From the IMG/VR virus record IMGVR_UViG_3300031857_000005, positions 1 to 64,000 of that record: a stretch of DNA of 64,000 nt. One strand, 5' to 3'. Shown in pieces: positions 3,578 to 63,700 of this stretch; position 1 is the first letter of the stretch; the number at the start of each line of letters is the position of its first letter. The position numbers and the translations under genes are program-made. Below the pieces are notes generated by a model. It did not search any database. It saw only the letters and a list, made by a program, of their open reading frames with translations, and had not been told where the DNA came from. Source of the stretch: a virus.

Positions 3578-3886
3578 ATGAAAATAATTATAACGGAAAA
3601 TAAAAGGGACAGACTGGCGTTAAATTGGTTGAATAATAAATTCGGTAATCTAACTAAGGTTGTTAACTATGATAGAACATTTTATGTTAATAAGGATAAA
3701 AAACCGTTATTTTACTATTATCAAGATGATAAAAATAAGTTTGTTTTTATTGATTACACAAGAATTTGGATATTTTTTGAATCCATTTTTGATATGGAAT
3801 ATGAACAAATACAAGATATTCTAAAAATATGGTTGGAAGAAACCTATAATTTGAGTGGATATTTACCTATTGATTACGGACACTAA
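3578..3886 (+). CDS. tagged (class C) hypothetical protein, 102 aa
   Basis: Begins MKIIITENKRDRLALNWLN, a class C tag with I-T-E at residues 5-7. An ATG six codons upstream lies on the promoter box, so 3578 is preferred. The body is aromatic and basic (YYYQDDKNKFVFIDYTRIWIFFES) and is probably a small alpha/beta domain. No function can be read from it. First of two tagged genes in one unit. Confidence 0.75.
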   Translation: MKIIITENKRDRLALNWLNNKFGNLTKVVNYDRTFYVNKDKKPLFYYYQDDKNKFVFIDYTRIWIFFESIFDMEYEQIQDILKIWLEETYNLSGYLPIDYGH

Positions 3887-3906
3887 CCTATAATATAAAA
3901 TAAAGT

Positions 3907-4782
3907 ATGAAAATATTTCTTACCGAAAAACAATTAAAATATTTAAAGTCAAATCTTATTTCAGAGTCAGATGAGGTAAATCAATATGGGTTTACACAGG
4001 ACGAAATGAAACGAATTGAAGAATTTGTTAGAAAAAATGTTAAACAACAATATGAATGGTTAAAAAAAGAAGTTGAGGAGGGTGAGGAACATGCGGAAAT
4101 TTTGGAAAAAATAAAAAGTCATATTAAAAATAATCCTGATATACCTGAAAAATATTTTGATTATATGATTAAAGAATATGAGGGTAAAGTAAAACAATAC
4201 GAAAGAAATAAAAAGAACCTTGAAAATTTTGATTTTGAAGAGTATGTTAAAGATGGTATTGATAGAGATATACACGGAGGAGCATATTCAATGTCTTGGA
4301 ATATCAGAAGCGAAAAATGGGAGAAAGAACAATTAAATAGAAAGTTAACAAAAGAAGACATAACTGATATTTTAGTTACCGCTCTTGAGGGTGGATCCAA
4401 TTATTGGTATTTAATTGATTTACCTGAAAATATAAAATCATATGGGCAATCAAAATCTGAAGCGGTTGGTGAATATGTCTTACGAGGTGGGTCAATTGAT
4501 TTCTACGATAAGGAAGAATATTATGATGTTAGGAGAGCATTAAAAGATGGTGATTACAATATTGGTGATAGTGATGATATGGTTGATGAAAAGAGTTATC
4601 AGGAAGACATTGAAAATACTAAACTTGGACATATTGATATGAACAGAATATTAGAGGCAATAACAAAAATAAAAAGTGAATATCCTGAAGTTTGGAAAAA
4701 TATATTATTGGAAAATGCGGATGCTGGAGATGCCGATGTATTCTTACAACTATGTGTAATGGGTGAAGTTGTTTATGGGTAA
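3907..4782 (+). CDS. tagged (class C) hypothetical protein, 291 aa
   Basis: The N-terminus MKIFLTEKQLKYLKSNLISE ends in I-S-E at residue 20, a candidate prohead-protease site. A long charged coiled-coil region (about 30-110) follows. Residues about 155-165 read VTALEGGSNYWYL, a motif I associate with small phage proteins of unknown function found in many tailed phages, and the C-terminus has a matching conserved feel (ENADAGDADVFLQLCVMGEVVYG). So this is a known orphan phage domain carrying an added tag and coiled coil. Confidence 0.8.
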   Translation: MKIFLTEKQLKYLKSNLISESDEVNQYGFTQDEMKRIEEFVRKNVKQQYEWLKKEVEEGEEHAEILEKIKSHIKNNPDIPEKYFDYMIKEYEGKVKQYERNKKNLENFDFEEYVKDGIDRDIHGGAYSMSWNIRSEKWEKEQLNRKLTKEDITDILVTALEGGSNYWYLIDLPENIKSYGQSKSEAVGEYVLRGGSIDFYDKEEYYDVRRALKDGDYNIGDSDDMVDEKSYQEDIENTKLGHIDMNRILEAITKIKSEYPEVWKNILLENADAGDADVFLQLCVMGEVVYG

Positions 4783-4804
4783 ATAAAAAATTATAAATTA
4801 AAAA

Positions 4805-4830
4805 CCCCACTCAAAAGGTGGGGATTTTTT
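4805..4830. terminator. bidirectional terminator between convergent genes
   Basis: Stem CCCCAC / GTGGGG with A runs on the left and T runs on the right, so it can stop transcription from the tagged gene (plus) and from the SLT gene (minus). Confidence 0.88.
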
Positions 4831-5377
4831 ATTTAAGTGATAACCACTTTGACTTATAATTTTTGTTAGTTCCACAATACCTACCATACTCATTTACAAT
4901 AGGTCTACCCGTGTTATAACAACCACAAACAACATTCCAGTCACCGTATTTATTATAAAGTTTTCGTAGAAGTTTCATACTTGTCCTAATGTTCAACTCA
5001 ATATCAGTCATAATTTTATGATTTGAATATTTTACTTTATTAATTGAATAAGATGTCATAGGCATAATCTGCATCGGACCCAAAGCCCCAACACAAGAGA
5101 TTCTTTCGGGATTGTACCTCCAATCAAAAGGACCTCTGTATGTTGTTTCTTTATACGCCACATTATATGCAACATACTTAGGAATGTTATATTCATCAGA
5201 GTATTTCTCAATACATTCATACATCCGAATAGAAATTGGTGAATTTGGAATACCTGATCCTTCATTCGTGAATTTACTATTAGATTGAATCTCAATCGTT
5301 GACATACCTGATAAGGTAATAATGGTAACAAGACATCCCATCAAGTATACCAATTTTAAAATGTTGGATACTTTCAT
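4829..5377 (-). CDS. SLT-type lytic transglycosylase, membrane anchored or secreted
   Basis: A 182-aa lysozyme-like goose/SLT fold protein that would cleave peptidoglycan. Residues 8-24 form a hydrophobic signal or anchor (LVYLMGCLVTIITLSG). The catalytic Glu lies in VAYKETTYRG (about 73-81), followed by the family motifs GALGPMQIMP (about 98-107) and CGCYNTGRP (about 152-160). Transcribed leftward with the small membrane gene at 5384-5701, 6 nt upstream, so both probably serve host lysis or entry. No Rz-type spanin is obvious. Confidence 0.9.
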   Translation of the reverse strand: MKVSNILKLVYLMGCLVTIITLSGMSTIEIQSNSKFTNEGSGIPNSPISIRMYECIEKYSDEYNIPKYVAYNVAYKETTYRGPFDWRYNPERISCVGALGPMQIMPMTSYSINKVKYSNHKIMTDIELNIRTSMKLLRKLYNKYGDWNVVCGCYNTGRPIVNEYGRYCGTNKNYKSKWLSLK

Positions 5378-5383
5378 AATCTA

Positions 5384-5701
5384 TTATTTTGATGTGTCTG
5401 AGAAAATATTTCTAGCGTATAGTTTAAACACCGAAACACCGATTGAATCTTGATAAACTGTGTAATCACCAGTTTTCTTGTCAATGATAATTAGATGGTT
5501 ATGTTCATCTAATGCTAAGTTAACCTGACTACGATTAACTTTAACCATATGGATGGTTGGTTTCTTTGGACCATATTCGTTATTATATGCTGAACCTGCG
5601 TAAAATCCCGCAAACAACGAAACCACAATAAACGACACAACTACCACATTTCTAAATAAAGGTTTATACCTTTCCACGAATTCATTAAATTTCTGTTTCA
5701 T
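5384..5701 (-). CDS. small bitopic membrane protein beside the lysozyme-like gene, 105 aa
   Basis: Start is set at the ATG at 5701 (MKQKFNEF); the further upstream TTG lies at the promoter box. One transmembrane segment near residues 17-37 (NVVVVSFIVVSLFAGFYAGSAY) is followed by an exported 65-residue domain with beta-rich sequence (NHLIIIDKKTGDYTVYQD). It is operonic with the SLT gene. A holin, pinholin partner or accessory lysis role fits, but there is no family signature. Confidence 0.72.
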   Translation of the reverse strand: MKQKFNEFVERYKPLFRNVVVVSFIVVSLFAGFYAGSAYNNEYGPKKPTIHMVKVNRSQVNLALDEHNHLIIIDKKTGDYTVYQDSIGVSVFKLYARNIFSDTSK

Positions 5702-5717
5702 ATTTTTAAGTTTTAAA

Positions 5718-9359: not shown

Positions 9360-10196
9360 ATGAATATCAGAAGAATTTTAATTTCCGAACAAGAAAAAAA
9401 AGACATATTATCGCAATATGGTGTAAAAAAAGATGTTATCTCTGAACAAACATTGAATGATGATGGAACATATACAATTAAGAATCTTCAAGAGTTTACA
9501 GTACACGCAATTCAGTATGGGGGTAGTGCACCTAGAGTTTACATTAAAAAAGGTGAGACAGTGAAAAAAAATACCGACGGTAAAAGTCTATCCGTAGATG
9601 TTTACTATAAAAAAGAAGACTCAACAGGTAAATTTACAGGTCCTTTGGTTAAATCAGGGTCTAAAGGGAAATTTATTTGTGGTGATTATTTATTAAGATT
9701 TGAAGGTAGTGAACAAACTTACGAACAAATTGTAATGACTGGACAACCATTTAAAACTGCAATGAATAAATTATTCTGTGATGGAAATAAATTAAAATCT
9801 GATAAAGTAGTTGGAGGTGGTGGTGAAGAACAAAAACCAAAAACAGATAATAGATGTAAATTTGTTGAGAAAGAATTCACAAATCAGCAAGTTTGTTATA
9901 TTCCGAATGATAAAACTTGGATGTATGCAAAAACTGATGATGGAAAATGGTACACAACTAAACAAACTGATAAAAAAACATGGTGTGAATTGACGACACC
10001 TAAATTCCAAAAGGCTATTGATAAATTAAATATTGAATGTAAAGGATTGGAACCAATATCAAAGTTGGAACTTAAACCAATTGGTACTATTGAAACTGAA
10101 AAGAATTTAGAATTGGTACCATCAAAACAACAAATGATTGATAAAGGTTTAGAGGCGGCTAAGTTTGTATCAAATCTACAAAACAGACCACAATAA
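9360..10196 (+). CDS. tagged (class D) protein, 278 aa
   Basis: N-terminus MNIRRILISEQ, then VISEQ at 26-30, giving two possible (I/L)xE cleavage points (E10, E29). Residues 30-150 are a soluble beta-rich domain; a glycine/lysine linker (GGGGEEQKPK) leads to a second cysteine-containing domain (RCKFVEKEF, QQVCYIP, WCELTTP, NIECKG) at 165-235 and a helical tail. A two-domain packaged protein with possible disulfide or zinc chemistry in the second half. The start at 9360 is chosen because of tag homology. Confidence 0.8.
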   Translation: MNIRRILISEQEKKDILSQYGVKKDVISEQTLNDDGTYTIKNLQEFTVHAIQYGGSAPRVYIKKGETVKKNTDGKSLSVDVYYKKEDSTGKFTGPLVKSGSKGKFICGDYLLRFEGSEQTYEQIVMTGQPFKTAMNKLFCDGNKLKSDKVVGGGGEEQKPKTDNRCKFVEKEFTNQQVCYIPNDKTWMYAKTDDGKWYTTKQTDKKTWCELTTPKFQKAIDKLNIECKGLEPISKLELKPIGTIETEKNLELVPSKQQMIDKGLEAAKFVSNLQNRPQ

Positions 10197-11930: not shown

Positions 11931-13181
11931 ATGAAGAAAAATTTAATCATTACTGAAAATCAACTTGAGATTATTGTAAATAATCTCTTACTGAATGAAG
12001 CCGTTGGAGTTCCTGAAGGAATCATTGAATCGGCTGAAGAACTATATGAAATCATATTAAACCTATTAAAAGGTATGGATGATTACGACACAACACAAAC
12101 ATTTACTGAAGATAATTTAGATTTAACAATATCTGATTATAAAATACACGAATTAGAGTTAGCAGTTCAAGTTCACGAAATGGATGAATATGATGGACCA
12201 TTCACTATGATATCAGCCGGTGTTGCAAATCAATTTAATTTTGATAGAAAACTACTAATGAAGGTTCATAAACAGGATAACACAATTGAGTTACAATTAC
12301 ATTTTGCATCAAATGGGGATGATTGGGATTCCCAAGACCCTTATAATTACTTTACTAATGATAGAGTTCAATTAATATCTGTAATTGCTCACGAAATTAA
12401 ACATAAGTTTGATAAACAAAAAAAGACAACTGACTTGATAGGGAAAGATGCTGATTATCAAGCATATGCAAGTCAAGGGTTAAACTTCGGAATTCCGGTT
12501 ATTAGTGAATTTATGAGATATAGTTATTTCATTCAATATGTTGAAAATCTTGTTAGACCAACTGAAATGGCAACAAGAATGAAATTAACTGGAGTAACAA
12601 GAGAAAAGTTTAGAGAATTTTTTGAAAATGATAGTGTTGTTAAAGAACTAAAAGAAATTAGAGATTTTAGTTTTGAACATTTTATGGAAGAATTACATAA
12701 TCAAATGGATCGTGTGGATGGTTTATTAGAACACGCAGATGTGGATTATGAAAATATGACTGAAGAGGAAAAAATAAAGGTAGTTATGGATATAGTTTAT
12801 ATTAATCTTATTAGTGCTAAAAGAGATATTTTTGATAAAATGACGGATAGTGTTGATAGTGAAATGGCTAATTTTATGAGAATGTTAGGTATGGGTGTTA
12901 AGCGTGAGAACGATGAAGGATTGGAAAAAGTTAGACATAAATATTTAAATCAACTTGCCAAATATCGTAATAGAGAAAGTCAGTTCTTTGTTGATGAATG
13001 TGAAAGATTTAACTATGTTGCAACAAAATTAATTAAACGACTTGTAAAAATATATTCACTTATTCCTGACGAAAAAGAACAAACCAACGAATCAATTCTT
13101 AATTGGGAGTTACACCAACAAATAATGGAGAAAAAATACGGAAAAAGAAAAATAGAAAAAGAGTTTAAATTTAAACGGTAA
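11931..13181 (+). CDS. tagged (class C/D) HExxH protein, putative zinc metallopeptidase
   Basis: The 416-aa protein starts MKKNLIITENQLEIIVNN and reaches L-N-E at 21-23, so a tag can be removed to leave A24. Residues about 155-165 read SVIAHEIKHKFD, a full HExxH zinc site inside a helix, preceded by FTNDRVQLI; this is how gluzincin/metzincin-like peptidases look. The candidate third ligand is not obvious (several Glu in the following 60 residues). The rest is helical and charged. If real, this is an enzyme carried inside the capsid and delivered with DNA. The tag and HExxH are visible; the activity is inference. Confidence 0.8.
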   Translation: MKKNLIITENQLEIIVNNLLLNEAVGVPEGIIESAEELYEIILNLLKGMDDYDTTQTFTEDNLDLTISDYKIHELELAVQVHEMDEYDGPFTMISAGVANQFNFDRKLLMKVHKQDNTIELQLHFASNGDDWDSQDPYNYFTNDRVQLISVIAHEIKHKFDKQKKTTDLIGKDADYQAYASQGLNFGIPVISEFMRYSYFIQYVENLVRPTEMATRMKLTGVTREKFREFFENDSVVKELKEIRDFSFEHFMEELHNQMDRVDGLLEHADVDYENMTEEEKIKVVMDIVYINLISAKRDIFDKMTDSVDSEMANFMRMLGMGVKRENDEGLEKVRHKYLNQLAKYRNRESQFFVDECERFNYVATKLIKRLVKIYSLIPDEKEQTNESILNWELHQQIMEKKYGKRKIEKEFKFKR

Positions 13182-13667: not shown

Positions 13668-13964
13668 ATGAAAAAAGTAATAAGACTAACCGAATCAGAC
13701 TTGACAAGAATAATCCAAAGGGTTATTACCGAATCCAAAAAGAAACAAAGTAAATCTGAAATATTAAAGATGTCAAAAGAAGAATTGGAAGATGTTTATG
13801 GTGAATTGGAAATAAAGGGTGAATACCATGGAAAAAAAGGAACATTCCACCATTTTAAAAAAGCTATGTTTGATGTTGTTTGTAGTTTTAGAACTGACGA
13901 TACAACACCATCAGGTTTAAAAAGAAATACAAAAGGAATTAAAGTTAAAAATTTAGATATTTAA
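13668..13964 (+). CDS. tagged (class A) hypothetical protein, 98 aa
   Basis: Class A tag with V-I-T-E ending at residue 22, so the mature protein would start SKKKQS. The body is basic with a probable alpha/beta core (ELEIKGEYHGKKGTFHHFKKAMFDVVCSF). First of three consecutive class A genes separated by 4 nt each; their bodies are unrelated by eye, so only the tag is shared. Confidence 0.8.
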   Translation: MKKVIRLTESDLTRIIQRVITESKKKQSKSEILKMSKEELEDVYGELEIKGEYHGKKGTFHHFKKAMFDVVCSFRTDDTTPSGLKRNTKGIKVKNLDI

Positions 13965-13968: not shown

Positions 13969-14301
13969 ATGAAAAAAGTAATAAGATTAACCGAATCAGA
14001 TTTAACAAGGATTGTTAAACGAGTGATCAATGAAAATAAGAAAAAACCATCAAATGAAAAAATTGAGGATGTGTTAAAAAAACTTATGGATGATTACATT
14101 GGTGAGGATGAATGGAAAGGTGGTTATAAAGAATCGTCAGATAAACCATATGACAGATTTATGGTTAGTTTTAAACAATCGGGGGATGACACCGAAGAGA
14201 TTGCTGAAGAAATCATTGAGAAACTAAATAATAAATTTGAAAGTAACTTATTTAAACTTGGTAACGCAAGTAAAAACTCATTTTGGTTTTATATAAAATA
14301 A
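13969..14301 (+). CDS. tagged (class A) hypothetical protein, 110 aa
   Basis: The tag ends V-I-N-E at residue 22. The body has a helical KKLMDDYIGEDEW segment, then SFKQSGDDTEEIAEEIIEKLNNKFES and a beta ending NSFWFYIK, compatible with a small ferredoxin-like fold. Second of the three-gene cassette. Confidence 0.8.
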   Translation: MKKVIRLTESDLTRIVKRVINENKKKPSNEKIEDVLKKLMDDYIGEDEWKGGYKESSDKPYDRFMVSFKQSGDDTEEIAEEIIEKLNNKFESNLFKLGNASKNSFWFYIK

Positions 14302-14305: not shown

Positions 14306-14653
14306 ATGAAAAAAATAATTAAACTAACCGAATCAGACTTGACAAGAATTGTTAATCGTGTGATTAAAGAAAATGAATCTAAATCTGATTTATTAGACTT
14401 AACCGTTTTTCAGTTGAGAAAAAAATTGGGTTTACCTAGTGGGTGTAAGATTGAGATTAAAAAGGGTGATGTTTCAGGAAAGAAACTTAAATATACTAAA
14501 TATGTTAAATACATTATTACTCAATTACCGTCACCTGTTGACGGTAATCGTGAAAAAATAATGGATAAAATAGAATCATTAGAATCTAAAGATATTAATT
14601 CTCATGCATCACCCAATTTTGGAAAGGGAGTGACTTGGATTATTAAATACTAA
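14306..14653 (+). CDS. tagged (class A) hypothetical protein, 115 aa
   Basis: The tag ends V-I-K-E at residue 22. The body has LPSGCKIEIKKGDVSGKKLKYTKYVKYIITQLP and a final GKGVTWIIKY strand; its general plan (helix, strands, helix, strand) resembles the preceding protein, hinting at old duplication. A terminator closes the unit. Confidence 0.8.
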   Translation: MKKIIKLTESDLTRIVNRVIKENESKSDLLDLTVFQLRKKLGLPSGCKIEIKKGDVSGKKLKYTKYVKYIITQLPSPVDGNREKIMDKIESLESKDINSHASPNFGKGVTWIIKY

Positions 14654-51662: not shown

Positions 51663-51926
51663 ATGAAAAAAGTTATAAGATTAACAGAAAGTGAATTAAC
51701 TCGTCTGATTAAAAGAATCATTAAAGAAAATGAAGATGATATAGATATGTCTAATTACTCAAACGATGACAGACTAAAAGGACTTAAAGATCAAATTATC
51801 ACTTATTTAAATGATAATGGGGTTTATCCTAATGAGGAATCTGATGATGATATTCTTGATGAATTATATTCCTTATATAGTCAAAGAGATCCACAAGCAA
51901 TTAGATTTGTAAGAAGATTAAGCTAA
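51663..51926 (+). CDS. tagged (class A) hypothetical protein, 87 aa
   Basis: Class A tag (E-S-E-L-T-R-L-I variant) ending I-I-K-E at residue 22. The body is acidic and helical (DRLKGLKDQIITYLNDNG, DDILDELYSLYSQRDPQAIRFVRRL). Lies between the nitroreductase and a 20-nt duplicate of that gene's 3' end at 51957. Confidence 0.78.
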   Translation: MKKVIRLTESELTRLIKRIIKENEDDIDMSNYSNDDRLKGLKDQIITYLNDNGVYPNEESDDDILDELYSLYSQRDPQAIRFVRRLS

Positions 51927-52029: not shown

Positions 52030-52036
52030 TTTTGTG

Positions 52037-52044
52037 GTATTTAT
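52037..52044 (+). promoter_or_regulatory. late motif GTATTTAT
   Basis: 4 nt before ATG 52049. Confidence 0.55.
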
Positions 52045-52048
52045 ATAT

Positions 52049-52780
52049 ATGAATTTACAAGAACAAATATCAAGGATCCAATCAATGATGGGACTGAATG
52101 AAATATCAAACCCATACTCAATTACTTGGTTAGAACCAACAAAAGAATATTTTACTCAAGAGTTAGACGAATTACTTGGAAATGATATGAGGTTCAGCAA
52201 AGATGAGTTCTTCCATCCACAAAATTATGATTTAATGTATTCATTATTTCCACATACATTTAAACTTATTGCGGAACACGCAAAAGGAAGTGAAGTGGAT
52301 GATGAACAAGAAATTAAAGACATTCTATTAGATAAAGAAATATCTGATTTAATGAATGATTGGGACGATTTCAGAAAGGTTCTATTAAATGATAGACAAT
52401 CACAAAGGGAGGGGTTTAATCTGTTTAATAAAGGAAGAATGAAAGAGTGGGATGATAATAAAATCAACAACACATTTTATATGGGAAAGTTCTCAAAAGA
52501 GTTTCCAGGAATGTTTAAAGATACAACATCGTCAGGTTTAATTAAACAAATGAAAAGTGATGATGGTGAAGTTAATCCACACCACAAAGGATATTTTGAT
52601 AATATAGAAAACTTAAGAAACGAAAGACACAGAGAACTTCCATCTCCATTTGTTATGAAATTACCGTCAGGTGGGAGAGAAGGAAATGAATATACATTAA
52701 TTGGTGGACACAAACGCTCAACAATTGCTAATCAACTAAATGTACCAATATCTGTTTGGTTTATAGATTTATCGGAATGA
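52049..52780 (+). CDS. tagged (class B2 variant) protein with ParB/sulfiredoxin-like C-terminus, 243 aa
   Basis: MNLQEQISRIQSMMGLNEI tag (L-N-E at 16-18). The C-terminal 50 residues read PSPFVMKLPSGGREGNEYTLIGGHKRSTIANQLNVPISVWFID. The I-G-G-H-(K/R)-R-x-x-x-A pattern is the ParB/sulfiredoxin nucleotide-binding core, used in CTP switches or as a nuclease/kinase fold. The middle helical domain (PTKEYFTQELDELLGNDMRF) is unassigned. A packaged ParB-like enzyme would be delivered with the genome. Confidence 0.78.
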   Translation: MNLQEQISRIQSMMGLNEISNPYSITWLEPTKEYFTQELDELLGNDMRFSKDEFFHPQNYDLMYSLFPHTFKLIAEHAKGSEVDDEQEIKDILLDKEISDLMNDWDDFRKVLLNDRQSQREGFNLFNKGRMKEWDDNKINNTFYMGKFSKEFPGMFKDTTSSGLIKQMKSDDGEVNPHHKGYFDNIENLRNERHRELPSPFVMKLPSGGREGNEYTLIGGHKRSTIANQLNVPISVWFIDLSE

Positions 52781-53511
52781 ATTCACAAGAAAACATATTA
52801 ATATTAAAAAGTATCGCCAAAAAGATATCAGATAAACTTCATTGTGATAGACACGGATCCTGTGTACATTTTGCGGAAATATTTGTTGAGGAAGTTAATG
52901 ATAAACATCCTGAATTATTAAATGATTTTGATGTTATTGAGGGATATGTTAATGTAAAGTTTGGGAATGGAATACCTCAAGAACATACTTGGATTAGATT
53001 AAATAATGGTGAAATTATTGATCCAACATTTTCACAGTTTGACAAATACGATAAAAACGCACAGTACAGTAAAAAAAGAACTAAAGTTTATTCAGGACAA
53101 GAATATTATGATGAGGGTAAAGAAGGATCGTGGTTCTCCGAAAGAAGAAAAAACCTCCCAAGTTCAGTATTCAAGGAAGGAAAAAGAGAGTCTATAAGAA
53201 AGGTATTAAGGGAAGAAACCAAATTACCATTAATCATTAGGAGAAGGATTAACACCTTGGAGGATTTGTTATACAATCATATGGCAACATCATATGCTCC
53301 ACACAAAGTTTGTAGATATAAAAACGAAGATGACTTACTTATGTATGTTATTGCATCGGTAATAGAAGATATGTATTATAGATACTTTGATGAAGAGATT
53401 AGTGATTTATCAAAAGAGTGGGAAGATATGTATAGATTAATGGAAAAATACATTACGGATGAATTTGGGGATAAAATAAAAAATTATTACCACATCCACT
53501 GTGGAGATTAA
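52777..53511 (+). CDS. tagged protein: transglutaminase/cysteine-peptidase-like domain plus RRR module, 244 aa
   Basis: MNSQENILILKSIAKKIS (weak B2 tag), then CDRHGSCVHFAEIFVEEV (about 25-42), PQEHTWIRLNNGEIIDPTFSQF (about 70-91): the Cys, His and Asp of a transglutaminase-like catalytic triad in the correct order. At about 141-165 GKRESIRKVLREETKLPLIIRRRI is an internal B2 tag followed by an RRR module to the end. Likely cleaved between the enzyme and the module. ATGA overlap with the upstream gene. Confidence 0.78.
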   Translation: MNSQENILILKSIAKKISDKLHCDRHGSCVHFAEIFVEEVNDKHPELLNDFDVIEGYVNVKFGNGIPQEHTWIRLNNGEIIDPTFSQFDKYDKNAQYSKKRTKVYSGQEYYDEGKEGSWFSERRKNLPSSVFKEGKRESIRKVLREETKLPLIIRRRINTLEDLLYNHMATSYAPHKVCRYKNEDDLLMYVIASVIEDMYYRYFDEEISDLSKEWEDMYRLMEKYITDEFGDKIKNYYHIHCGD

Positions 53512-53522
53512 TGAGTAATACT

Positions 53523-54218
53523 ATGAACCTACAAGAACATATAAGAAGAGTATTAAGGGAAGAAAAAAGATTCTCACCATTTATCAGTAGAAGATTACCA
53601 GAGGATGAGATAAATACATACTTCAATGAAGTTAAGAATCGTTTAATGGGAATGATAACAAGTGATAAGTCATCTATGATGGAAAAAGATGAATTTAAAC
53701 AATTTATCATTACATACACAATTAATTTCATAATGGAAAACTATTATGATACATTTCCTGAAATGACGGACTTCTATGAAAAATTATTTGATGATTTATA
53801 TGAATATTATAATAATGAAATGGATGAATCTTATGAGAGTATAAATAATATGAACCTACAAGAGAACATAAGAAAAGTATTGAGGGAAGAAAATAATATA
53901 CCGTCATATATTAGAAGAAGACTCGGTATTTTACAGGAGTATATGGATGATTTGGATCCAAACGATATTTGTAAATACTGGGATTATGATGAGGTTGATG
54001 GATTCACAAATGAGGTATTATCAGAGATAGTTAGAATTATAGTTAATAGTATTCCTGAAATACATTCAGAAGATTGGTTTAATGCTTATGATGAAGTACT
54101 TGGTGTGTTAACCGATTTAAATTACCACTTGGAAATTAACGACTTTTTTATTCACACACTTGATAATTGTGATAATTATGTAAATGAATCAATAGATAGA
54201 AATGAAAGAATTAATTAG
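53523..54218 (+). CDS. double-tagged protein with two RRR modules, 231 aa
   Basis: MNLQEHIRRVLREEKRFSPF starts module 1 (FISRRLPEDEINTYF); at about 110 a complete second tag, MNLQENIRKVLREENN, starts module 2 (IPSYIRRRLGILQEYM). The internal ATG at 53851 with its own tag shows that two single-module genes were fused by loss of a stop codon; it may still be used as a start. An ATG four codons upstream (53511) exists but the tag begins at 53523. Confidence 0.82.
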   Translation: MNLQEHIRRVLREEKRFSPFISRRLPEDEINTYFNEVKNRLMGMITSDKSSMMEKDEFKQFIITYTINFIMENYYDTFPEMTDFYEKLFDDLYEYYNNEMDESYESINNMNLQENIRKVLREENNIPSYIRRRLGILQEYMDDLDPNDICKYWDYDEVDGFTNEVLSEIVRIIVNSIPEIHSEDWFNAYDEVLGVLTDLNYHLEINDFFIHTLDNCDNYVNESIDRNERIN

Positions 54219-54636
54219 ACATATAATAAAAGAAGAAACATCAAGAAAAACTAAACTATTAAAAATGGTTGATAGTATTGGGGTTCTAAACACGGCAGAT
54301 GTTGTTGGTGGGGTGGAAAAATTATTTGATATATTAGGAAACGAGTTCTTCACCGACTCCAATAAGATTGATATTATTAAAGAAATTATAGAATCAAATA
54401 ATGGGGAATATATCTCATTGAGTGAACTAGGTGAAGAACCAATATTGGTAGATGATGACGGTGTAGAGTTTTCACAAATAGAAATATTATATTCAACAGA
54501 TGTAATGTTATATCATTATGAAAAAGAAACAGGAAAAGATCATGGAGAATCATTTATGGATTATGTACAATTACGAAGTTATATAATAGATGATATCTTT
54601 AATATGTTGGTTGACTATTATATAAATAACAATTAA
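54202..54636 (+). CDS. tagged (class B1) GG-module protein, 144 aa
   Basis: MKELIRHIIKEETSRKTKLL tag, then KMVDSIGVLNTADVVGGVEKLFDILG, a clear GG module, then an acidic part (YISLSELGEEPILVDDDGVEFSQIEILY) and C-terminal helix IDDIFNMLVDYYINN. Closest to module 2 of 42375, including the DDIFNMLVD-like end. Overlaps the upstream gene by 17 nt. Confidence 0.82.
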   Translation: MKELIRHIIKEETSRKTKLLKMVDSIGVLNTADVVGGVEKLFDILGNEFFTDSNKIDIIKEIIESNNGEYISLSELGEEPILVDDDGVEFSQIEILYSTDVMLYHYEKETGKDHGESFMDYVQLRSYIIDDIFNMLVDYYINNN

Positions 54637-54641
54637 GTGGA

Positions 54642-55073
54642 ATGAAAGAATTAATCAGACATATAATAAAAGAAGAAACCAACCGAAAGACAAGGATGGT
54701 AAAAATCATTAATAATATGGGAATTGATAAAACCATAGAGATGATAGGGGGATTTGATAAGTTTGAGAAAATAATGGATATAAATGATCCGATGGATTAC
54801 CTACATCTATTTAACGGAATGGATGAAGTCGAATCAAAACAATACGAAAAATCTTTTATATATCGTTTTAACCCAAAACGCAATATAATGATGGTTAACC
54901 CTAATATAGAAAGAGTATATATCAATCAATATGAAATATGGAATGTTCTAAGGCGTGAATTTGATTTAAATAATAATGAAGCTCTTGATGCCGTAAATGA
55001 ATGGTTAAAAGATGAATATGGTGTAGAAGATTTTATGTTATTAGTTTCAAGCGCTTTAGATACAATTAAATAA
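54642..55073 (+). CDS. tagged (class B1) GG-module protein, 143 aa
   Basis: MKELIRHIIKEETNRKTRMV tag identical in its first 13 residues to that of 54202, then KIINNMGIDKTIEMIGGFDKFEKIM. The middle shares YLHLFNGMDEVE with FLNLFNDMDEII of 55073, so these two are closer sisters. C-terminal helix NEALDAVNEWLKDEYGVED. Confidence 0.82.
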   Translation: MKELIRHIIKEETNRKTRMVKIINNMGIDKTIEMIGGFDKFEKIMDINDPMDYLHLFNGMDEVESKQYEKSFIYRFNPKRNIMMVNPNIERVYINQYEIWNVLRREFDLNNNEALDAVNEWLKDEYGVEDFMLLVSSALDTIK

Positions 55074-55531
55074 TGAAAGAATTAATTAGACATATATTAA
55101 GGGAAGATCAAAACAGAGAAGAAAGACTCAGGTTAAAAATTATCTCCATTATTAGAGATGCAGGACTTTCCCAAGCAATAAGTGTGATAGGAGGGGTTAA
55201 TAATTTGATTAGAATATTGGGGGTAGAAAACTCAATGAAATTTCTCAATTTGTTTAATGATATGGATGAGATAATTTTTGTTGATGAATACAATGATGAC
55301 GATGAGTATACATTATTTAGATTCAGGGAAGGATTAAATTATTTTGTCCTAAGAAATGATACAGGAACATTATTCATCTCCAAAGATATTATGGATGTAT
55401 TAAAGACTATGGAAAATGATGATTATTTCTATATTTATCTATGGATTAAAAGATGGGTTAAAAATCAATACGGAATAGAACCAAGAAATATCTTAACAAC
55501 TGCTGGCGGAGATTTAGAAACGATGGGATAA
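55073..55531 (+). CDS. tagged (class B1) GG-module protein, 152 aa
   Basis: MKELIRHILREDQNREERL tag (L-R-E), then SIIRDAGLSQAISVIGGVNNLIRILG and FLNLFNDMDEIIFVDEYND. C-terminus YLWIKRWVKNQYGIEPRNIL resembles the 54642 end. The start codon overlaps the upstream stop. Confidence 0.82.
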   Translation: MKELIRHILREDQNREERLRLKIISIIRDAGLSQAISVIGGVNNLIRILGVENSMKFLNLFNDMDEIIFVDEYNDDDEYTLFRFREGLNYFVLRNDTGTLFISKDIMDVLKTMENDDYFYIYLWIKRWVKNQYGIEPRNILTTAGGDLETMG

Positions 55532-55532: not shown

Positions 55533-55880
55533 ATGAAAGAATTAATTAGACATATAATAAAGGAGGAAACAAAGTTACCGGCATTAATCAGAAGAAGGGT
55601 ATCTGAAGATGAGTTAGAACGAGAGTTTAAAGAATCGTTAAAAGATGCATTGGCAATGATTAAGAGAGGAAAAGACGATAGTTTACAATCCTTTACATAC
55701 CAACGAATGTTAGAACATCTAATATGGGTAACAATTAGTATGTTAATTGATTCGATCCATTATGAATTATTCTCAACAATCCCTGAAAATATAAATTGGT
55801 ATGATGAAGTATTCAAAATGTTAGAGAAACATTACAGAAGTAGAATTGTTGATGAATACATGAAACATTTTAGATTATAA
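55533..55880 (+). CDS. tagged (class B1) RRR-module protein, 115 aa
   Basis: MKELIRHIIKEETKLPALIRRRVSEDELEREF: B1 tag joined to an RRR module whose linker ETKLPxxIRRR is identical in form to that of 52777, so tag classes B1 and B2 have been swapped on the same module by recombination. The rest is helical with a WYDEVFKMLEKHY end shared in style with 53523 module 1 (FYEKLFDDLYEYY). Confidence 0.82.
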   Translation: MKELIRHIIKEETKLPALIRRRVSEDELEREFKESLKDALAMIKRGKDDSLQSFTYQRMLEHLIWVTISMLIDSIHYELFSTIPENINWYDEVFKMLEKHYRSRIVDEYMKHFRL

Positions 55881-55888: not shown

Positions 55889-56302
55889 ATGAATATACAA
55901 GAAAACATAAGAAGAATATTAAGGGAAATGAGTGATGACTTATATGTTATACAGGATGAAGATAATCTTTTTTTACAAAGTCTTCCTCGTTCTATTAAAA
56001 GAAGAATAACCCATAAAGATTTAAAATGGTTTGATAATAGAATTGATGATTATATTCGTACAGTAACACACAAAGTCGGTTATAATTTATTTAAATCAAT
56101 GGTTCTTGAGGGTATTATCAATGAATTTGTAACTGTATTTAAACTTAATGAATTTTCAGATGAACAAAATGAATGGGGGTTTTTTGAGTATGAATCAGAA
56201 GAATCAAAAAAGGCATTTGATTTGTTTTCTAAATTAAAACCATTTCTTGATGATAAATATGGAAAAAGAATACGACAAGGATGGGAACAAAAAATGAGAT
56301 AG
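55889..56302 (+). CDS. tagged (class B2) RRR-module protein, 137 aa
   Basis: MNIQENIRRILREMSDDL tag, then a 16-residue spacer and SLPRSIKRRITHKDLKWFDNRI, an RRR module with K for the middle R. Last gene of the tandem array; the next 870 nt carry no long ORF. Confidence 0.8.
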   Translation: MNIQENIRRILREMSDDLYVIQDEDNLFLQSLPRSIKRRITHKDLKWFDNRIDDYIRTVTHKVGYNLFKSMVLEGIINEFVTVFKLNEFSDEQNEWGFFEYESEESKKAFDLFSKLKPFLDDKYGKRIRQGWEQKMR

Positions 56303-59978: not shown

Positions 59979-60275
59979 ATGAAAATTATTATCACCGAGA
60001 ATCAAAACGATTTAATAAGACGATACCAATTATTCAAAGATGAGGTATATAAACAAATGGGAACTTCAAACCCTTGTTATTATAATGATTACTTTGATTT
60101 TGACAGATACAAACGGGATATGATAAATTCCTCAATTAATGAGGTTGTTGGTGATTTGGGTATTGATGAAAGAATATTGACAACATTCAAAGGTGAATTA
60201 TTAAATGAGTTACTTGGTATTATTAGAAGATACTACAATAAATTCCTTAAGGAGAACTGTCGTCCAAGATGGTAA
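59979..60275 (+). CDS. tagged (class C) protein, 98 aa
   Basis: MKIIITENQNDLIRRYQLF: class C tag, then a helical body (EVYKQMGTSNPCYYNDYFDF, SSINEVVGDLG, LLNELLGIIRRYYNKFLKE). The CYYNDYFDFDRYKRDMI part resembles the middle of RRR-module proteins (for example CEHYPTLKIFMEGFI in 60294), so it may be a diverged copy. Confidence 0.78.
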   Translation: MKIIITENQNDLIRRYQLFKDEVYKQMGTSNPCYYNDYFDFDRYKRDMINSSINEVVGDLGIDERILTTFKGELLNELLGIIRRYYNKFLKENCRPRW

Positions 60276-60293: not shown

Positions 60294-60620
60294 ATGAAGA
60301 TTATTATAACGGAAGAACAATATGACAATTTATATTTAAGGAGAAGATTGTCTGATATAATGGATGAAGGATTATTCTTAATTGATAATGCCCATAATCT
60401 TTATAGGGGTACTGACTTTTGTGAACATTACCCCACTCTTAAGATATTCATGGAAGGTTTTATTGAGGACATTATAAATCAATATTATAATATGACTGGT
60501 GATGATATACGGGAATTTATCTATGATTATATTGGGCAAGAAAACTTTATTGATATGTTGCTTGATGTTCATGGTGAGGAGATTGAAACCTTATATAATG
60601 AAATAACAAAAGATTGTTAA
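60294..60620 (+). CDS. tagged (class C) RRR-module protein, 108 aa
   Basis: MKIIITEEQYDNLYLRRRLSDIMDEG: class C tag on an RRR module, the third tag class seen on this domain. Body FCEHYPTLKIFMEGFIEDIINQYYN, then IYDYIGQENFIDMLLDVHGEEIETLYNEI. Own late motif, as for its neighbour. Confidence 0.8.
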   Translation: MKIIITEEQYDNLYLRRRLSDIMDEGLFLIDNAHNLYRGTDFCEHYPTLKIFMEGFIEDIINQYYNMTGDDIREFIYDYIGQENFIDMLLDVHGEEIETLYNEITKDC

Positions 60621-60719: not shown

Positions 60720-61058
60720 ATGAAAAAATTTATTATAACAGAAGAAGAAAAAAGTAGAATCTTGGGTATGCACAAATCATACGCATCAATGATTAACGAA
60801 CAAGTGTTAACCGATGAAGAAGTACAAAATCGTTTAGCGGTTTTATATATAATGAAAACACAAAAATTAGATAAACTAAAGTCAGAAAACTATTTAAAAA
60901 ATGAGGGTGGTTATGACAACTTTATTACAGGATTTGATGGACAAAATGAGCCTTATATGGATTGGTTAAAATCTATAGGGTTAGAAAGAGGTGATGTTTA
61001 TATTGATGGTGGTAATAGAGATCGTGTTTTAACTAAATTAAAAGAACTTGAAAAATAA
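60720..61058 (+). CDS. tagged (class C/D) hypothetical protein, 112 aa
   Basis: MKKFIITEEEKSRILGMHKS, continuing to M-I-N-E at residue 27 with Q28 after the cut. The body LTDEEVQNRLAVLYIMKTQKLDKLKSENYLK, then GGYDNFITGFDGQNEPYMDWLKSIGLERG: helical, acidic. The EEEKSRILxMHK stretch is a tag form I have seen on phage virion proteins. Confidence 0.78.
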   Translation: MKKFIITEEEKSRILGMHKSYASMINEQVLTDEEVQNRLAVLYIMKTQKLDKLKSENYLKNEGGYDNFITGFDGQNEPYMDWLKSIGLERGDVYIDGGNRDRVLTKLKELEK

Positions 61059-61546: not shown

Positions 61547-61861
61547 ATGAAAAAGATTATTAAATTAACGGAATCAGATTTAACAAGAATTGTTAATCGT
61601 GTAATTAACGAGGATTATTCTTCTAATTTTAAAAGAAGGTTTAAATCAATTAATGATGAAATATTGGAGTTGATTGATAGTGCTAAGGATGAGGTTGATG
61701 AGGATGATTTTGATGACTATTATGATTATTTGGAGGGTCTTGTTTATTGGGTTGTACAAGAACTACAATCAAGATATGGAGATGATGATGATTTTTGGTA
61801 TGATGACGAGGACGAAATAATTGAGTACATTAAAGATAAGTATGATGAGTACTTGGAATAA
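61547..61861 (+). CDS. tagged (class A) acidic protein, 104 aa
   Basis: The tag ends V-I-N-E at residue 22. The body is extremely acidic after a basic start (FKRRFKSINDEILELIDSAKDEVDEDDFDDYYDYLEGL; GDDDDFWYDDEDEIIEYI), about one third Asp/Glu. A DNA-mimic-like surface is possible; such proteins can inhibit DNA-binding host factors, but this is inference from composition. Confidence 0.78.
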   Translation: MKKIIKLTESDLTRIVNRVINEDYSSNFKRRFKSINDEILELIDSAKDEVDEDDFDDYYDYLEGLVYWVVQELQSRYGDDDDFWYDDEDEIIEYIKDKYDEYLE

Positions 61862-61873: not shown

Positions 61874-62413
61874 ATGAACAGAAGCTATAGTAAAATCAGG
61901 CATATACAAGAATCTAATTTAAAATTGGAAAAAAGATTCTTAAATGAACAAATAACAACGGGAACAACAACGGGAACAACAACGGGAACAACTCAAGTTG
62001 ACATTAATGAAGAACAAGGTATAACTCCTTCGTGGGAATCAAAATACACCGAATGGGCGAATAATAAATCAGGCAATCCCGAATTGGCAATGAAACTAAT
62101 GTCAAGATATTGGGATTTAAAAAATCATCCTGAAATGCCTGTTAAGTACAAAGATTTTAATAATTTAACTGACGCTAACGAACTACAAGATCTTATTGAT
62201 GAAATGGAAGAGGCGGTAATAATTAACAAACTGAATCAAGACATTACAAGAGTAAATCATTTTGGGGATTATCATGATGGTAGATATCAATCCGATTATC
62301 ATAAAAAACATGATATAAGTGTTGGTCCTGAGGCTAAAAAAGAGAGAGAAAAAAGACAAGAAGAAAGAAGACGAGAAGAAGATAGAAAATGGTTTGAAAG
62401 AATGAGACACTGA
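61874..62413 (+). CDS. tagged (class D) protein with TTG repeat, 179 aa
   Basis: MNRSYSKIRHIQESNLKLEK, continuing to F-L-N-E at residue 25, then ITTGTTTGTTTGTTQ, encoded by a 12-nt unit (ACAACGGGAACA) repeated three times in tandem, and so able to change length in frame by slippage. The rest: WESKYTEWANNKSGNPELAMKL, YWDLKNHPEMP and a highly charged C-terminal helix KKEREKRQEERRREEDRKW. Confidence 0.75.
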   Translation: MNRSYSKIRHIQESNLKLEKRFLNEQITTGTTTGTTTGTTQVDINEEQGITPSWESKYTEWANNKSGNPELAMKLMSRYWDLKNHPEMPVKYKDFNNLTDANELQDLIDEMEEAVIINKLNQDITRVNHFGDYHDGRYQSDYHKKHDISVGPEAKKEREKRQEERRREEDRKWFERMRH

Positions 62414-62429
62414 ATATGAAATAAACATT

Positions 62430-62464
62430 ACCCCCATTCCTAATAAGAGTGGGGTTTTTTGTTT
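62430..62464 (+). terminator. rho-independent terminator
   Basis: CCCCA / TGGGG stem, then T6. A second small hairpin CCGAC-TTC-GTCGG follows at 62496-62508 with its own T run. Confidence 0.8.
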
Positions 62465-62528
62465 TCTGCCTTTTATGTGTTTTTTTGTCCCGTTCCCGAC
62501 TTCGTCGGTTATTTTTTGTTTGGATGAT

Positions 62529-62536
62529 ATATTTAT
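62529..62536 (+). promoter_or_regulatory. late motif ATATTTAT (with TATAAATA)
   Basis: ATATTTATAAATAAAA, 14 nt before ATG 62551. Confidence 0.6.
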
Positions 62537-62550
62537 AAATAAAATTAATT

Positions 62551-63357
62551 ATGAAACATATTTTAAACGACATATCTTTGGAAGACAAGAAGAGAATCCT
62601 TGAACAACATGACGGTGGAAAAAAATTGGTTATTGAAAACTTTAATAAATTGGTTAATAACAAATTGGGTACCGTAAAGGTTTTGGTTGAACAAGATGAC
62701 GAGTTCTTAAAGACTGACTGGGTTCAGACAAGTTATGTAACCCCATTGTTAACCAATGGTTATTCTCAAGTTGCTGAAATAGATCTTCCTGATGGTACAT
62801 ACAAAATGGGAGGTAGTGGATATCAAATTAATATTAACGATTCCACTGATAAAGAAACTGGATATTCATTAATTGTTCAGAGTGGAATTAGAGGTGAATG
62901 GGAAGGTGATATAACAATTACATCAAAAAAACCAAGTAAAAATTATGCTGGTATATTCTTTAAAAATGTTGGATATACTGCACCTGAAAAAACTATTCAA
63001 ACAGGACAAACTCAAACTTTATCAAGTAAGGTATCAACTGAAGGACTTAAAAATGTTTCCGACTCAATGATACAATCCCCACCATTTAAAGGTTATTATA
63101 GTGGTTATGTAATTGGTGGGACTTTTAATGGTGTAAATTATGAATGGGATTTTAATGGTGTTGAGGGTATGTCAGGAGTTAGAGGTATGGTTGATGGACA
63201 GATTATTTGTGATAATAATACTGGTTTAAATAAACAAACAAAAAAGGAAATCACAGATGCTATTAACCCAGGATTTTGGCTTGGTTTTTATAGTTCACAA
63301 TCAAAATTTGTGTGTTATATGACAACAAATAATACCCCTAAAGTGGTGACATTTTAA
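62551..63357 (+). CDS. tagged (class D) beta-rich protein, 268 aa
   Basis: MKHILNDISLEDKKRILEQH: tag with R-I-L-E-Q at 15-19, and V-L-V-E-Q near residue 46-50 as a second possible cut. The rest is beta-rich and Gly/Ser-rich (GTYKMGGSGYQININDSTDKE, GYYSGYVIGGTFNGVNYEWDFNG), like a virion or lectin-like domain. The downstream class A gene is 22 nt away. Confidence 0.78.
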   Translation: MKHILNDISLEDKKRILEQHDGGKKLVIENFNKLVNNKLGTVKVLVEQDDEFLKTDWVQTSYVTPLLTNGYSQVAEIDLPDGTYKMGGSGYQININDSTDKETGYSLIVQSGIRGEWEGDITITSKKPSKNYAGIFFKNVGYTAPEKTIQTGQTQTLSSKVSTEGLKNVSDSMIQSPPFKGYYSGYVIGGTFNGVNYEWDFNGVEGMSGVRGMVDGQIICDNNTGLNKQTKKEITDAINPGFWLGFYSSQSKFVCYMTTNNTPKVVTF

Positions 63358-63379
63358 ATAAATAAATAAAAACAAAAAA

Positions 63380-63700
63380 ATGAAAAAAGTAATTAGATTA
63401 ACCGAATCAGATTTAGTCCGAATAGTTAGAAGAGTAATTAAAGAAGGGGTAACCGTAGTAAACCCTTGGTCGGATATTGAAAGTGTCGATAAAGGAGATA
63501 CTATGAAAGTAACTTCTAAAGATGGTGCCATTGATCATTTTAAGAATGGAAAAAGATGGACTGGATATATTGGATACAATATTATACAAAATCCAAGACA
63601 GGTACAACTTGATCAATCAGGTGCTATGAATGTTGTTTCATTTGACCCAACAAGAAAAACCGTAACATTCCAAAACGGAGTTGTAATTGGACCGGCATAA
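63380..63700 (+). CDS. tagged (class A) beta protein, 106 aa
   Basis: Class A tag (L-V-R-I-V-R-R variant) ending V-I-K-E at residue 22. The body VDKGDTMKVTSKDGAIDHFKNGKRWTGYIGYN, then VVSFDPTRKTVTFQNGVVIGPA, looks like a small SH3/OB-type barrel. Closes with a strong terminator. Confidence 0.8.
   Translation: MKKVIRLTESDLVRIVRRVIKEGVTVVNPWSDIESVDKGDTMKVTSKDGAIDHFKNGKRWTGYIGYNIIQNPRQVQLDQSGAMNVVSFDPTRKTVTFQNGVVIGPA

What the first reader, a model, noticed from the sequence alone, without database searches (positions are those of the whole stretch)
3578..63700. About 38 proteins share an N-terminal tag that fits a capsid-targeting propeptide
Seen: otherwise unrelated proteins start with one of a few 10-27 residue amphipathic peptides (MKKVIRLTESDLTRIV, MKELIRHIIKEE, MNLQENIRRILREE, MKIIITEKQ and irregular forms), and nearly all contain (I/L)-x-E at the tag end (V-I-N-E, I-K-E-E, L-R-E-E, I-T-E, G-L-N-E). 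Known: T4 packages internal proteins by an N-terminal capsid targeting sequence removed by prohead protease gp21 at (L/I)-x-E. Inference: this phage packs and injects dozens of different proteins, far more than T4's few internal proteins.
Basis: partly seen in the sequence, partly recalled or inferred. Interest (0 to 1): 0.88.

Follow-up and report, generated by a model that had tools for sequence, protein, structure and literature searches.

The report
Jumbo phage's tagged, capsid-loaded cargo proteins
A giant bacterial virus, probably of Bacteroidetes, appears to put short, removable address tags on dozens of its own proteins so that they are loaded into the virus head, far more than the few known in the classic phage T4; the sequence evidence is strong but no virus particle has been examined.

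Summary
The record is a 304 kb T4-like jumbo phage with a gp21-type (S77) prohead protease, gp23-type capsid protein and gp20-type portal. Several lines point to capsid targeting plus gp21 cleavage. Class A conservation stops at (I/V/L)-x-E. In one cargo family 59 of 59 sequences have [IL]xE|A at the tag/cargo border with four tag lengths. Cargo families swap tag types. The gp23 site aligns as LINE|A. Tagged genes share a promoter motif with the protease and scaffold genes. Tagged cargo avoids internal [IL]xE: strongly in class A, weakly in D, not in B/C, and not significantly in this genome alone. All 11 tag-selected contigs of 180 kb or more that were tested have S77. Presence in virions and injection are untested. 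Best reading: a greatly expanded, multi-tag version of the T4 internal-protein system.

The parts
3578..3886 (+). tagged gene, class D (MKIIITEN...)
   Evidence: TATTTAT starts 13 nt before the tag ATG
3907..4782 (+). tagged gene, class D, predicted tag MKIFLTEKQLKYLKSNLISE|SDEV
9360..10196 (+). tagged gene, class D (MNIRRILISEQEKKDILSQYG...VISE|Q)
   Evidence: two TATTTAT copies upstream
11931..13181 (+). tagged gene, class D, MKKNLIITENQLEIIVNNLLLNE|AVGVPEG; HExxH-containing cargo; [IL]xE|A in 59 of 59 sequences (this one and 58 relatives)
   Evidence: residues 1-24 below pLDDT 50 in the model
13668..13964 (+). tagged gene, class A (MKKVIRLTESDLTRIIQRVITE|S)
13969..14301 (+). tagged gene, class A (...RVINE|N)
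14306..14653 (+). tagged gene, class A (...RVIKE|N)
16217..16543 (-). tagged gene, class C (MNLQENIRRILREELLNE|TKFF); relative in L049 has ...TINE|SKFF
16546..16995 (-). tagged gene, class C (MNLQESIRRILREE)
36410..36829 (+). irregular tagged gene, class B with GTG start (MRNIIRQILKEE)
   Evidence: by eye; not found by the strict patterns
36813..37823 (-). tagged gene, class B (MKDLIKYIIKEE)
39590..39889 (+). tagged gene, class D (MKIIITEKQ)
39886..40431 (+). tagged gene, class D (MKLILNENQ)
42375..43985 (+). tagged gene, class B; two internal VGG-domain copies, each preceded by [IL]xE (QLKE, VITE)
43993..45363 (+). irregular tagged gene (MITKLLKEELFRIQDLMNIKRTILNE|E)
   Evidence: not found by the strict patterns
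45376..45723 (+). tagged gene, class B (MKDLIKHILKEE)
45723..46130 (+). tagged gene, class C (MNLQENIHRIKSMMGLYE|Q)
46421..47200 (+). tagged gene, class B, VGG-domain cargo
47205..48242 (+). tagged gene, class B, VGG-domain cargo plus an internal tag-like helix (ESRKIIKKVLMEEE)
48239..48568 (+). tagged gene, class B (MKELIRYILKEE)
48611..49135 (+). tagged gene, class A (...VINE|NQEEVD), DUF6576 cargo; class D paralog in the same genome has LIE|NQKYVD
50176..50934 (+). tagged gene, class C; internal VGG domain preceded by KLNE
51663..51926 (+). tagged gene, class A (...RIIKE|N)
52049..52780 (+). tagged gene, class C (MNLQEQISRIQSMMGLNE|ISNPY)
52777..53511 (+). tagged gene, class C, no clear terminal [IL]xE; internal tag-like RESIRKVLREE
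53523..54218 (+). tagged gene, class C, with a second complete tag inside (MNLQENIRKVLREE)
54202..54636 (+). tagged gene, class B, VGG-domain cargo
54642..55073 (+). tagged gene, class B, VGG-domain cargo; relatives carry class D tags
55073..55531 (+). tagged gene, class B (MKELIRHILRED), VGG-domain cargo
55533..55880 (+). tagged gene, class B (MKELIRHIIKEE)
55889..56302 (+). tagged gene, class C (MNIQENIRRILRE|M)
59979..60275 (+). tagged gene, class D (MKIIITENQ)
60294..60620 (+). tagged gene, class D (MKIIITEEQ)
60720..61058 (+). tagged gene, class D (MKKFIITEEEKSRILGMHKSYASMINE|Q)
61547..61861 (+). tagged gene, class A (...RVINE|D)
61874..62413 (+). irregular tagged gene (MNRSYSKIRHIQESNLKLEKRFLNE|Q)
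   Evidence: listed as irregular
62551..63357 (+). irregular tagged gene (MKHILNDISLEDKKRILEQH)
   Evidence: listed as irregular; TATTTAT starts 21 nt upstream
63380..63700 (+). tagged gene, class A (MKKVIRLTESDLVRIVRRVIKE|G)

Best explanation
The tags are capsid-targeting propeptides. Late in infection, tagged proteins are made together with the head proteins. Their N-terminal helix docks them into the prohead core. The phage's gp21-type S77 protease then cuts after (I/L)-x-E, freeing mature cargo inside the head, and the cargo leaves with the DNA into the next host. Shown by sequence: the tags, their modularity and exchange between cargos, the invariant site at the tag/cargo border in one large family, the protease and the matching capsid-protein site, the shared promoter motif, and avoidance of the site in class A cargo. 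Inferred: that the shared promoter is late, docking into the core, cutting in the particle, presence in virions, injection, and the functions of the cargo (most likely counter-defence and host take-over, by analogy with T4 Ip1-Ip3).
For: S77 protease, E 3e-23; phrog_207 head maturation protease, E 3e-42; gp23-type capsid protein. Capsid-protein site LINE|A aligns with T4 FLTE|A and is LINE in 80 of 80 aligned close relatives, this one included. In 121 tagged IMG/VR proteins chosen by residues 1-12 only, conservation runs to E22 (105 of 121) with a free residue at P2 and falls off after it; codons vary at fixed residues. 59 of 59 sequences of the 11931 family have [IL]xE|A with tag lengths 15, 16, 21 and 23. 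The same cargo occurs with different tags. TATTTAT within 40 nt of the start: 182 of 299 tagged against 239 of 1048 untagged in 118 related stretches; the same motif, within 50 nt, precedes the protease in 41 of 43 and the scaffold in 55 of 60. Tagged cargo [IL]xE observed/expected 0.91 against 1.12, p 0.0005, while [IL]xD, xK, xQ, xN and [VMF]xE are not depleted; class A 0.70 against 1.14. S77 in 11 of 11 tag-selected contigs of 180 kb or more and 18 of 22 of 100 kb or more; neither class A tag nor S77 in 6 of 6 non-T4-like controls. 0 strict tags of 79 genes in the sampled 120-150, 170-190, 215-235 and 265-285 kb.
Against: No virion data. Site avoidance is weak in class D (0.89, p 0.04), absent in B+C (0.97, p 0.42) and not significant within this genome alone (0.90, p 0.13, where the [IL]xD control is 0.93). 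The promoter excess is carried by classes A (110 of 154) and D (63 of 120); C is 6 of 20, B only 3 of 5, and the reverse-complement motif is also commoner before class A genes (26 of 154 against 69 of 1048). The motif precedes only half or fewer of the terminase (13 of 26), portal (13 of 32) and MCP (12 of 63) genes. 8 of 22 class D proteins lack a second [IL]xE, so they would have to be cut at the first ITE or not at all. The class A tag finds nothing in T4. Tagged cargo is on average slightly acidic, while T4 IPs are positive. 4 of 22 tag-selected and 2 of 19 gp23-selected contigs lack S77, perhaps because they are fragments. The helix-amphipathicity test beats shuffles clearly for one A and one C peptide, is borderline for B (0.056) and fails for the second C type and D.
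Confidence: 0.83

Rival explanations
1. The tagged proteins enter the prohead core and are cut, but mainly build, size or fill the core and are largely degraded or expelled before DNA packaging, as with T4 gp22, gp67 and gp68; few reach the next cell.
For: Several proteins carry internal tags or [IL]xE sites at domain borders (53523, 42375, 47205, 50176, 52777, and the head-module ORF 141536-142969). B and C cargo shows no site avoidance. T4 core proteins are cut into fragments (passages of PMC9026906).
Against: Class A cargo avoids the site, as expected if it must survive whole. The 11931 cargo is well conserved and predicted mostly folded, not what a disposable scaffold needs. The tagged genes are many and varied, and strict tags lie almost all outside the head region.
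Confidence: 0.15
2. The tags are addresses for another place (tail, outer surface, membrane, or a replication compartment) and the (I/L)-x-E is only the end of a binding helix.
For: Some class D cargo looks by eye like wall-active proteins (101642, 100822), which would suit a tail or lysis role; Pfam gave no hit for them.
Against: In three internal copies the (I/L)-x-E remains where the tag helix is not recognisable. P2 is free while P3 and P1 are fixed, and P1' is A in all of the 11931 family. Depletion of [IL]xE but not [IL]xD or VxE in tagged cargo suggests a protease. No strict tag among the 26 genes read in the two stretches taken as tail regions.
Confidence: 0.07
3. The common N-termini are by-products: DNA cassettes spread by recombination, translation leaders suited to the phage's own S21 protein, or simple paralogy.
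For: The phage encodes bS21. Tagged genes cluster in tandem and some cargo families are paralogs.
Against: Synonymous codons vary at invariant residues. Same cargo with different tags and same tag with different cargo. Conservation extends to residue 22 and ends at E.
Confidence: 0.03

Closest known systems
Phage T4 internal proteins IPI-IPIII and Alt with capsid-targeting sequence, cut by gp21
   Same: Short N-terminal peptide (10-19 residues for IPs) ending in L/I-X-E; S77 protease; unrelated cargo behind a shared leader (passages of PMC9026906; passages of PMC12373910; sequences).
   Different: Here four tag types of different sequence, 56 strictly tagged genes in the 214 kb read, tag exchange between cargos, tags inside longer proteins; T4 has three IPs, and related T-even phages at least 10 reported.
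Giant phages phiKZ and SPN3US ejection proteins
   Same: Many different head proteins, cut by a diverged gp21 relative, many ejected (passages of PMC5694885, and PMC9026906; beginnings of the abstracts of PMC7411985 and PMC10052503).
   Different: In SPN3US most propeptides are long (several over 100 residues) and not a shared short tag set; neither phage has a class A tag or a PF03420 match.
Flavobacterium phage immuto (NC_055915)
   Same: T4-like phage of a Flavobacterium with its own N-terminal peptides ending in (I/L)-x-E, e.g. MENFDLKKFLVENKLTTNSKILKE and MKKQILSEQFKRMQFLAGIITE (by eye).
   Different: Far fewer: 12 of 206 genes pass the pair score, of which 5 look like tags; no class A tag.
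bS21-encoding Bacteroidetes jumbo phages (PMC9723584)
   Same: Same genome anatomy: S21 gene on the reverse strand inside the terminase-portal-protease-capsid region, genomes up to 331 kb, predicted Bacteroidetes hosts (abstract and passages; here).
   Different: Nothing on N-terminal tags appeared in the passages seen; the whole text was not read.
Phage P1 DarA/Hdf
   Same: Head-associated defence-against-restriction proteins (title and beginning of the abstract of PMC12810830 in search listings; that they are delivered with the DNA is recalled).
   Different: No shared short tag family or S77 link was tested here.

Membership tests
T4-type capsid-targeting sequence / internal proteins | Short N-terminal propeptide shared by otherwise different proteins | tested here: met
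   138 high-scoring N-terminal pairs against 4 internal and 1 shuffled; 56 of 283 genes by strict pattern. That it is a propeptide is inferred.
T4-type capsid-targeting sequence / internal proteins | Peptide ends in (L/I)-X-E | tested here: met
   A 15 of 15, C 8 of 9, D 14 of 22 in this genome; 59 of 59 in the 11931 family; in IMG/VR class A, P3 is I, V or L in 119 of 121.
T4-type capsid-targeting sequence / internal proteins | gp21-family (S77) prohead protease and gp23-type capsid protein with the same kind of site | tested here: met
T4-type capsid-targeting sequence / internal proteins | Recognisable sequence similarity of the tag to the T4 CTS (MKTYQEFIAE) | tested here: not met
   the class A profile finds nothing in T4 or KVP40. 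Classes B-D were not searched there.
T4-type capsid-targeting sequence / internal proteins | Basic mature protein | tested here: not met
   mean net charge of tagged cargo -0.033 per residue, 39% basic (untagged -0.020, 33%); the three T4 IPs are positive.
T4-type capsid-targeting sequence / internal proteins | Expressed with the head genes | tested here: inconclusive
   Shared promoter-like motif; no transcript data for the tagged genes were examined.
T4-type capsid-targeting sequence / internal proteins | Present in the virion, tag removed | not testable with these tools
   Needs virion proteomics.
T4-type capsid-targeting sequence / internal proteins | Injected into the host | not testable with these tools
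   Needs an infection experiment.
phiKZ/SPN3US-type ejection proteins | phiKZ-type protease and mostly long propeptides | tested here: not met
   The protease here is an S77 match while phiKZ and SPN3US give no PF03420 match; predicted tags are about 7-27 residues.

The most novel reading that the evidence does not exclude
A large, widespread group of T4-like phages, probably of Bacteroidetes, has turned the T4 internal-protein trick into a general export system: several interchangeable address tags, a single cutting rule (I/L)-x-E, and about 60 or more different cargo proteins per genome, some of them polyproteins with internal tags that the prohead protease would split into separate injected effectors.
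Probability: 0.6. Interest if true: 0.9.

Novelty: new variant of a known kind. Interest (0 to 1): 0.8.

Why it matters
If right, a rule of a few residues names a large part of a jumbo phage's dark proteins as virion cargo, and cargo can be listed in many environmental phage genomes by sequence alone. It would point to a large untapped set of injected counter-defence and take-over proteins, probably aimed at Bacteroidetes, give natural, interchangeable packaging tags for protein delivery, and offer a simple system in which to study how cargo is chosen for a phage head.

Tried and rejected
The 22-residue class A tag gave no hit in the INPHARED phage collection by tblastn; the query is short, so this says little. 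Pfam, PHROGs and PADLOC on the 38 window proteins gave almost nothing: Pfam DUF6576 in one protein and a weak DNTTIP1_dimer hit (0.0027) in one; seven PHROGs families, one protein each, the best at 1.5e-13 without description and two named ones at 0.002 and 0.005; six PADLOC families, one protein each, at 0.0006 to 0.004 and unrelated to each other, taken as chance. The 11931 family has no PDB sequence match; its AlphaFold model (pLDDT 71, other low stretches besides the tag) has no PDB fold match at E 0.001 and three uncharacterised phage matches in BFVD, so its HExxH cargo stays unidentified. A T4-late TATAAATA reading of the promoter was considered; TATTTAT separates tagged from untagged genes better (4 of 51 against 24 of 51 tagged within 70 nt). 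The motif is not in front of most MCP genes (12 of 63), which I read as MCP being transcribed from the scaffold promoter, in line with the statement in PMC9723584 that MCP and its upstream gene may be transcribed together (passage). Relatives of 48611 gave one locus, identical in sequence. No paper describing these tags was found in the searches and 107 of the open-licence PMC library; most subscription papers are not held there, nor are bioRxiv preprints.

Full report
What was checked. The window is bases 1-64000 of a 304,365-base virus record. Genes were predicted from ORFs by a simple longest-first rule. Many proteins begin with a few peptide types: class A (MKKVIRLTESDLTRIVxRVINE), B (MKELIRHIIKEE), C (MNLQENIRRILREE and MNLQEQISRIQSMMGLNE) and D (MKIIITEKQ..., often with a second (I/L)-x-E further on). 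N-terminal pair scores of 45 or more: 138 pairs in 43 of 285 genes, against 4 pairs in residues 36-65 and 1 pair after shuffling. Strict patterns mark 34 of 119 window genes and 56 of 283 genes in the 214 kb read: 55 of 187 in 1-90 and 100-120 kb, 1 of 17 in 290-304 kb, and 0 of 79 in 120-150, 170-190, 215-235 and 265-285 kb. The 120-150 kb stretch holds the head genes, 215-235 kb the tail tube and baseplate hub, 170-190 kb looks like tail fibres by eye, and 265-285 kb is mixed, with a sigma factor. Irregular tags do occur in the head region by eye (128996, 143912 on the minus strand, 141536), and a few irregular candidates elsewhere. The same pair score gives 14 of 246 genes in T4 (only ipII and ipIII have the capsid-targeting leader), 2 of 142 in RM378, 12 of 206 in immuto (5 look like tags) and 14 of 362 in KVP40 (none looks like a tag); T4 was read nearly whole, while RM378, immuto and KVP40 lacked about 10, 10 and 5 kb.

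The machinery. The genome has a gp21-type protease (PF03420, E 3e-23; phrog_207), a gp23-type capsid protein, a gp20-type portal, a T4-type terminase, an S21 ribosomal protein gene on the reverse strand inside the head module and a sigma-70 factor. The S21 arrangement matches the Bacteroidetes jumbo phages of PMC9723584 (abstract and passages); the host here is inferred from that likeness. T4 gp23 loses a 65-residue propeptide and gp21 cuts after L/I-X-E (passages of PMC9026906). In an alignment, the T4 site FLTE|A falls on LINE|A in this phage (60 residues) and on VSE|A in immuto, where P3 is V. LINE is unchanged in 80 of 80 capsid proteins (this one and 79 relatives); these are close relatives, so part of this is shared descent. 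By eye, more distant ones read LISE|A (Mel-JY01) and LLKE|A (LR756508).

The tag end. From IMG/VR, 121 distinct proteins were taken by a pattern that fixes residues 1-12 only. Conservation continues to E22 (105 of 121), with I, V or L at position 20 in 119 of 121 and a free residue at 21, and drops at 23 (1.2 bits) and 24 (0.7 bits); three shifted cases among the 40 printed (L040, L043, L044) have four extra residues and still end in (I/L)-x-E. Codons for invariant residues vary, so selection is on protein. In the 11931 cargo family, 60 relatives were found; of the 59 sequences compared (this one and 58 relatives) 59 have [IL]xE followed by A at the tag/cargo border, with tags of 15, 16, 21 or 23 residues and 25 distinct sequences. 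The earlier Glu of these tags is missing in 4 of the 25 as printed (the script's own count, 20 present, missed one with wider spacing), so the second site is the constant one. A further relative, in L035, reads by eye as a class B tag, MRELIRQVLRE|ALGVP. Class A and class D tags stand before the same DUF6576-type cargo in this genome: VINE|NQEEVD (48611) and LIE|NQKYVD (72090), and LLE|NQEYIN in L089. VGG-domain cargo occurs with B tags here and with C or D tags elsewhere, and three internal copies are preceded by QLKE, VITE and KLNE. In the predicted structure of the 11931 family, residues 1-24 are below pLDDT 50 while the cargo after about residue 30 is mostly folded, with some other low stretches.

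Expression. TATTTAT lies within 40 nt of the start in 25 of 51 tagged genes (one of the 51 is the thymidylate synthase false positive), 14 of 46 head/tail genes, 20 of 134 other variable-region genes and 4 of 23 genes of 265-285 kb; tagged against other variable p 5e-6, against 265-285 kb p 0.01, against head/tail p 0.10. In the 118 IMG/VR stretches it is 182 of 299 tagged (A 110 of 154, D 63 of 120, C 6 of 20, B 3 of 5) against 239 of 1048 untagged, p 9e-34; the reverse-complement motif is 35 of 299 against 69 of 1048 and an unrelated AT motif 27 of 299 against 74 of 1048. These genes come from related phages, so they are not fully independent. Within 50 nt the motif precedes the protease in 41 of 43, the scaffold in 55 of 60, a conserved gene (134290) in 6 of 6, the terminase in 13 of 26, the portal in 13 of 32, MCP in 12 of 63, S21 in 1 of 8, 128996 in 0 of 4, and the gene after the protease in 0 of 42. 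The protease and scaffold pattern fits the statement in PMC9723584 that protease plus downstream gene, and MCP plus upstream gene, may each be transcribed together (passage). So the tagged genes appear to use the promoter of head genes; that it is a late promoter is inference.

A footprint of the protease. If tagged cargo meets an (I/L)-x-E protease, it should avoid that motif. Among 291 tagged and 734 untagged de-duplicated proteins, [IL]xE observed/expected is 0.91 against 1.12 (ratio 0.81, p 0.0005, the floor of 2000 permutations). Controls: [IL]xD 1.07, [IL]xK 1.03, [IL]xQ 1.15, [IL]xN 1.11, [VMF]xE 1.06, [KR]xE 1.00, [ST]xE 0.97, [IL]xxE 0.97. In the full scan some other pairs are low too ([IL]xC 0.61, [IL]xI 0.84, [IL]xL 0.86, CxE 0.65, QxE 0.86), without a test. 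By class: A 0.62 (138 proteins, p 0.0005), D 0.89 (118, p 0.04), B+C 0.97 (31, p 0.42); this genome alone 0.90 (48 against 156, p 0.13; [IL]xD there 0.93); IMG/VR 0.76 (239 against 610, p 0.0005). The effect is thus carried by class A.

Co-occurrence. Of the 22 contigs of 100 kb or more among the 80 printed tag hits, 18 have an S77 match, and 11 of 11 at 180 kb or more. Of 19 gp23-selected contigs of 40 kb or more (one more was the same record as a tag-selected one), 17 have S77 and 12 a class A tag. Six non-T4-like controls (phiKZ, crAss001, phi38:1, phi14:2, SPN3US, G) have neither. Six T4-like named phages (immuto, T4, Mel-JY01, RM378, P-SSM2, KVP40) have S77 but no class A tag; LR756508 has S77 and one marginal tag hit (E 0.004). 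The class A vocabulary thus looks specific to this clade.

Cargo. Pfam, PHROGs and PADLOC name almost none of the 38, as would suit fast-evolving counter-defence proteins such as T4 Ip1-Ip3, which share only the leader and inhibit GmrSD variants (passages of PMC12373910). Any such function here is inference.

Verdict. The step from there to dozens of injected proteins is likely but untested. As a kind it belongs beside the T4 internal-protein system, with differences large enough (several interchangeable tags, dozens of cargos, tags within longer proteins) to call it a new variant.

Noticed in passing
G000 135003-135188 (minus), outside the window: Ribosomal protein S21 gene inside the head module, as in published Bacteroidetes jumbo phages.
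   Followed up: partly
window 42375-43985, 47205-48242, 50176-50934, 52777-53511, 53523-54218; G000 141536-142969: Tags or (I/L)-x-E sites inside longer proteins, at domain borders: possible polyproteins cut by the prohead protease.
   Followed up: partly
window 42375-55531: A recurring 34-residue cargo domain (VGG) in eight copies in six or seven tagged genes, also found with other tags in related phages.
   Followed up: partly
upstream of tagged and head genes, sampled stretches of the record: Promoter-like motif (G)ATATTTAT(A/T), mostly 11-30 nt before starts; the phage has its own sigma-70 factor (G000 280552-281352).
   Followed up: partly
window 11931-13181; G000 86652-87251: Two tagged proteins with HExxH-like motifs, possibly metallopeptidases; no database or PDB fold match for the first, no Pfam hit for the second.
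   Followed up: partly
window 650-2678 and G000 301746-303774: A two-gene pair near the start of the record has a diverged copy near its end (by eye); if the genome is circular they would be neighbours.
   Followed up: no
window 31482-32315: Thymidylate synthase whose natural N-terminus mimics a tag end (KIISE|G).
   Followed up: yes
G000 100822-102595 (minus): Two class D tagged proteins that by eye resemble wall-active proteins (peptidoglycan-binding and L,D-transpeptidase-like); no Pfam hit.
   Followed up: no
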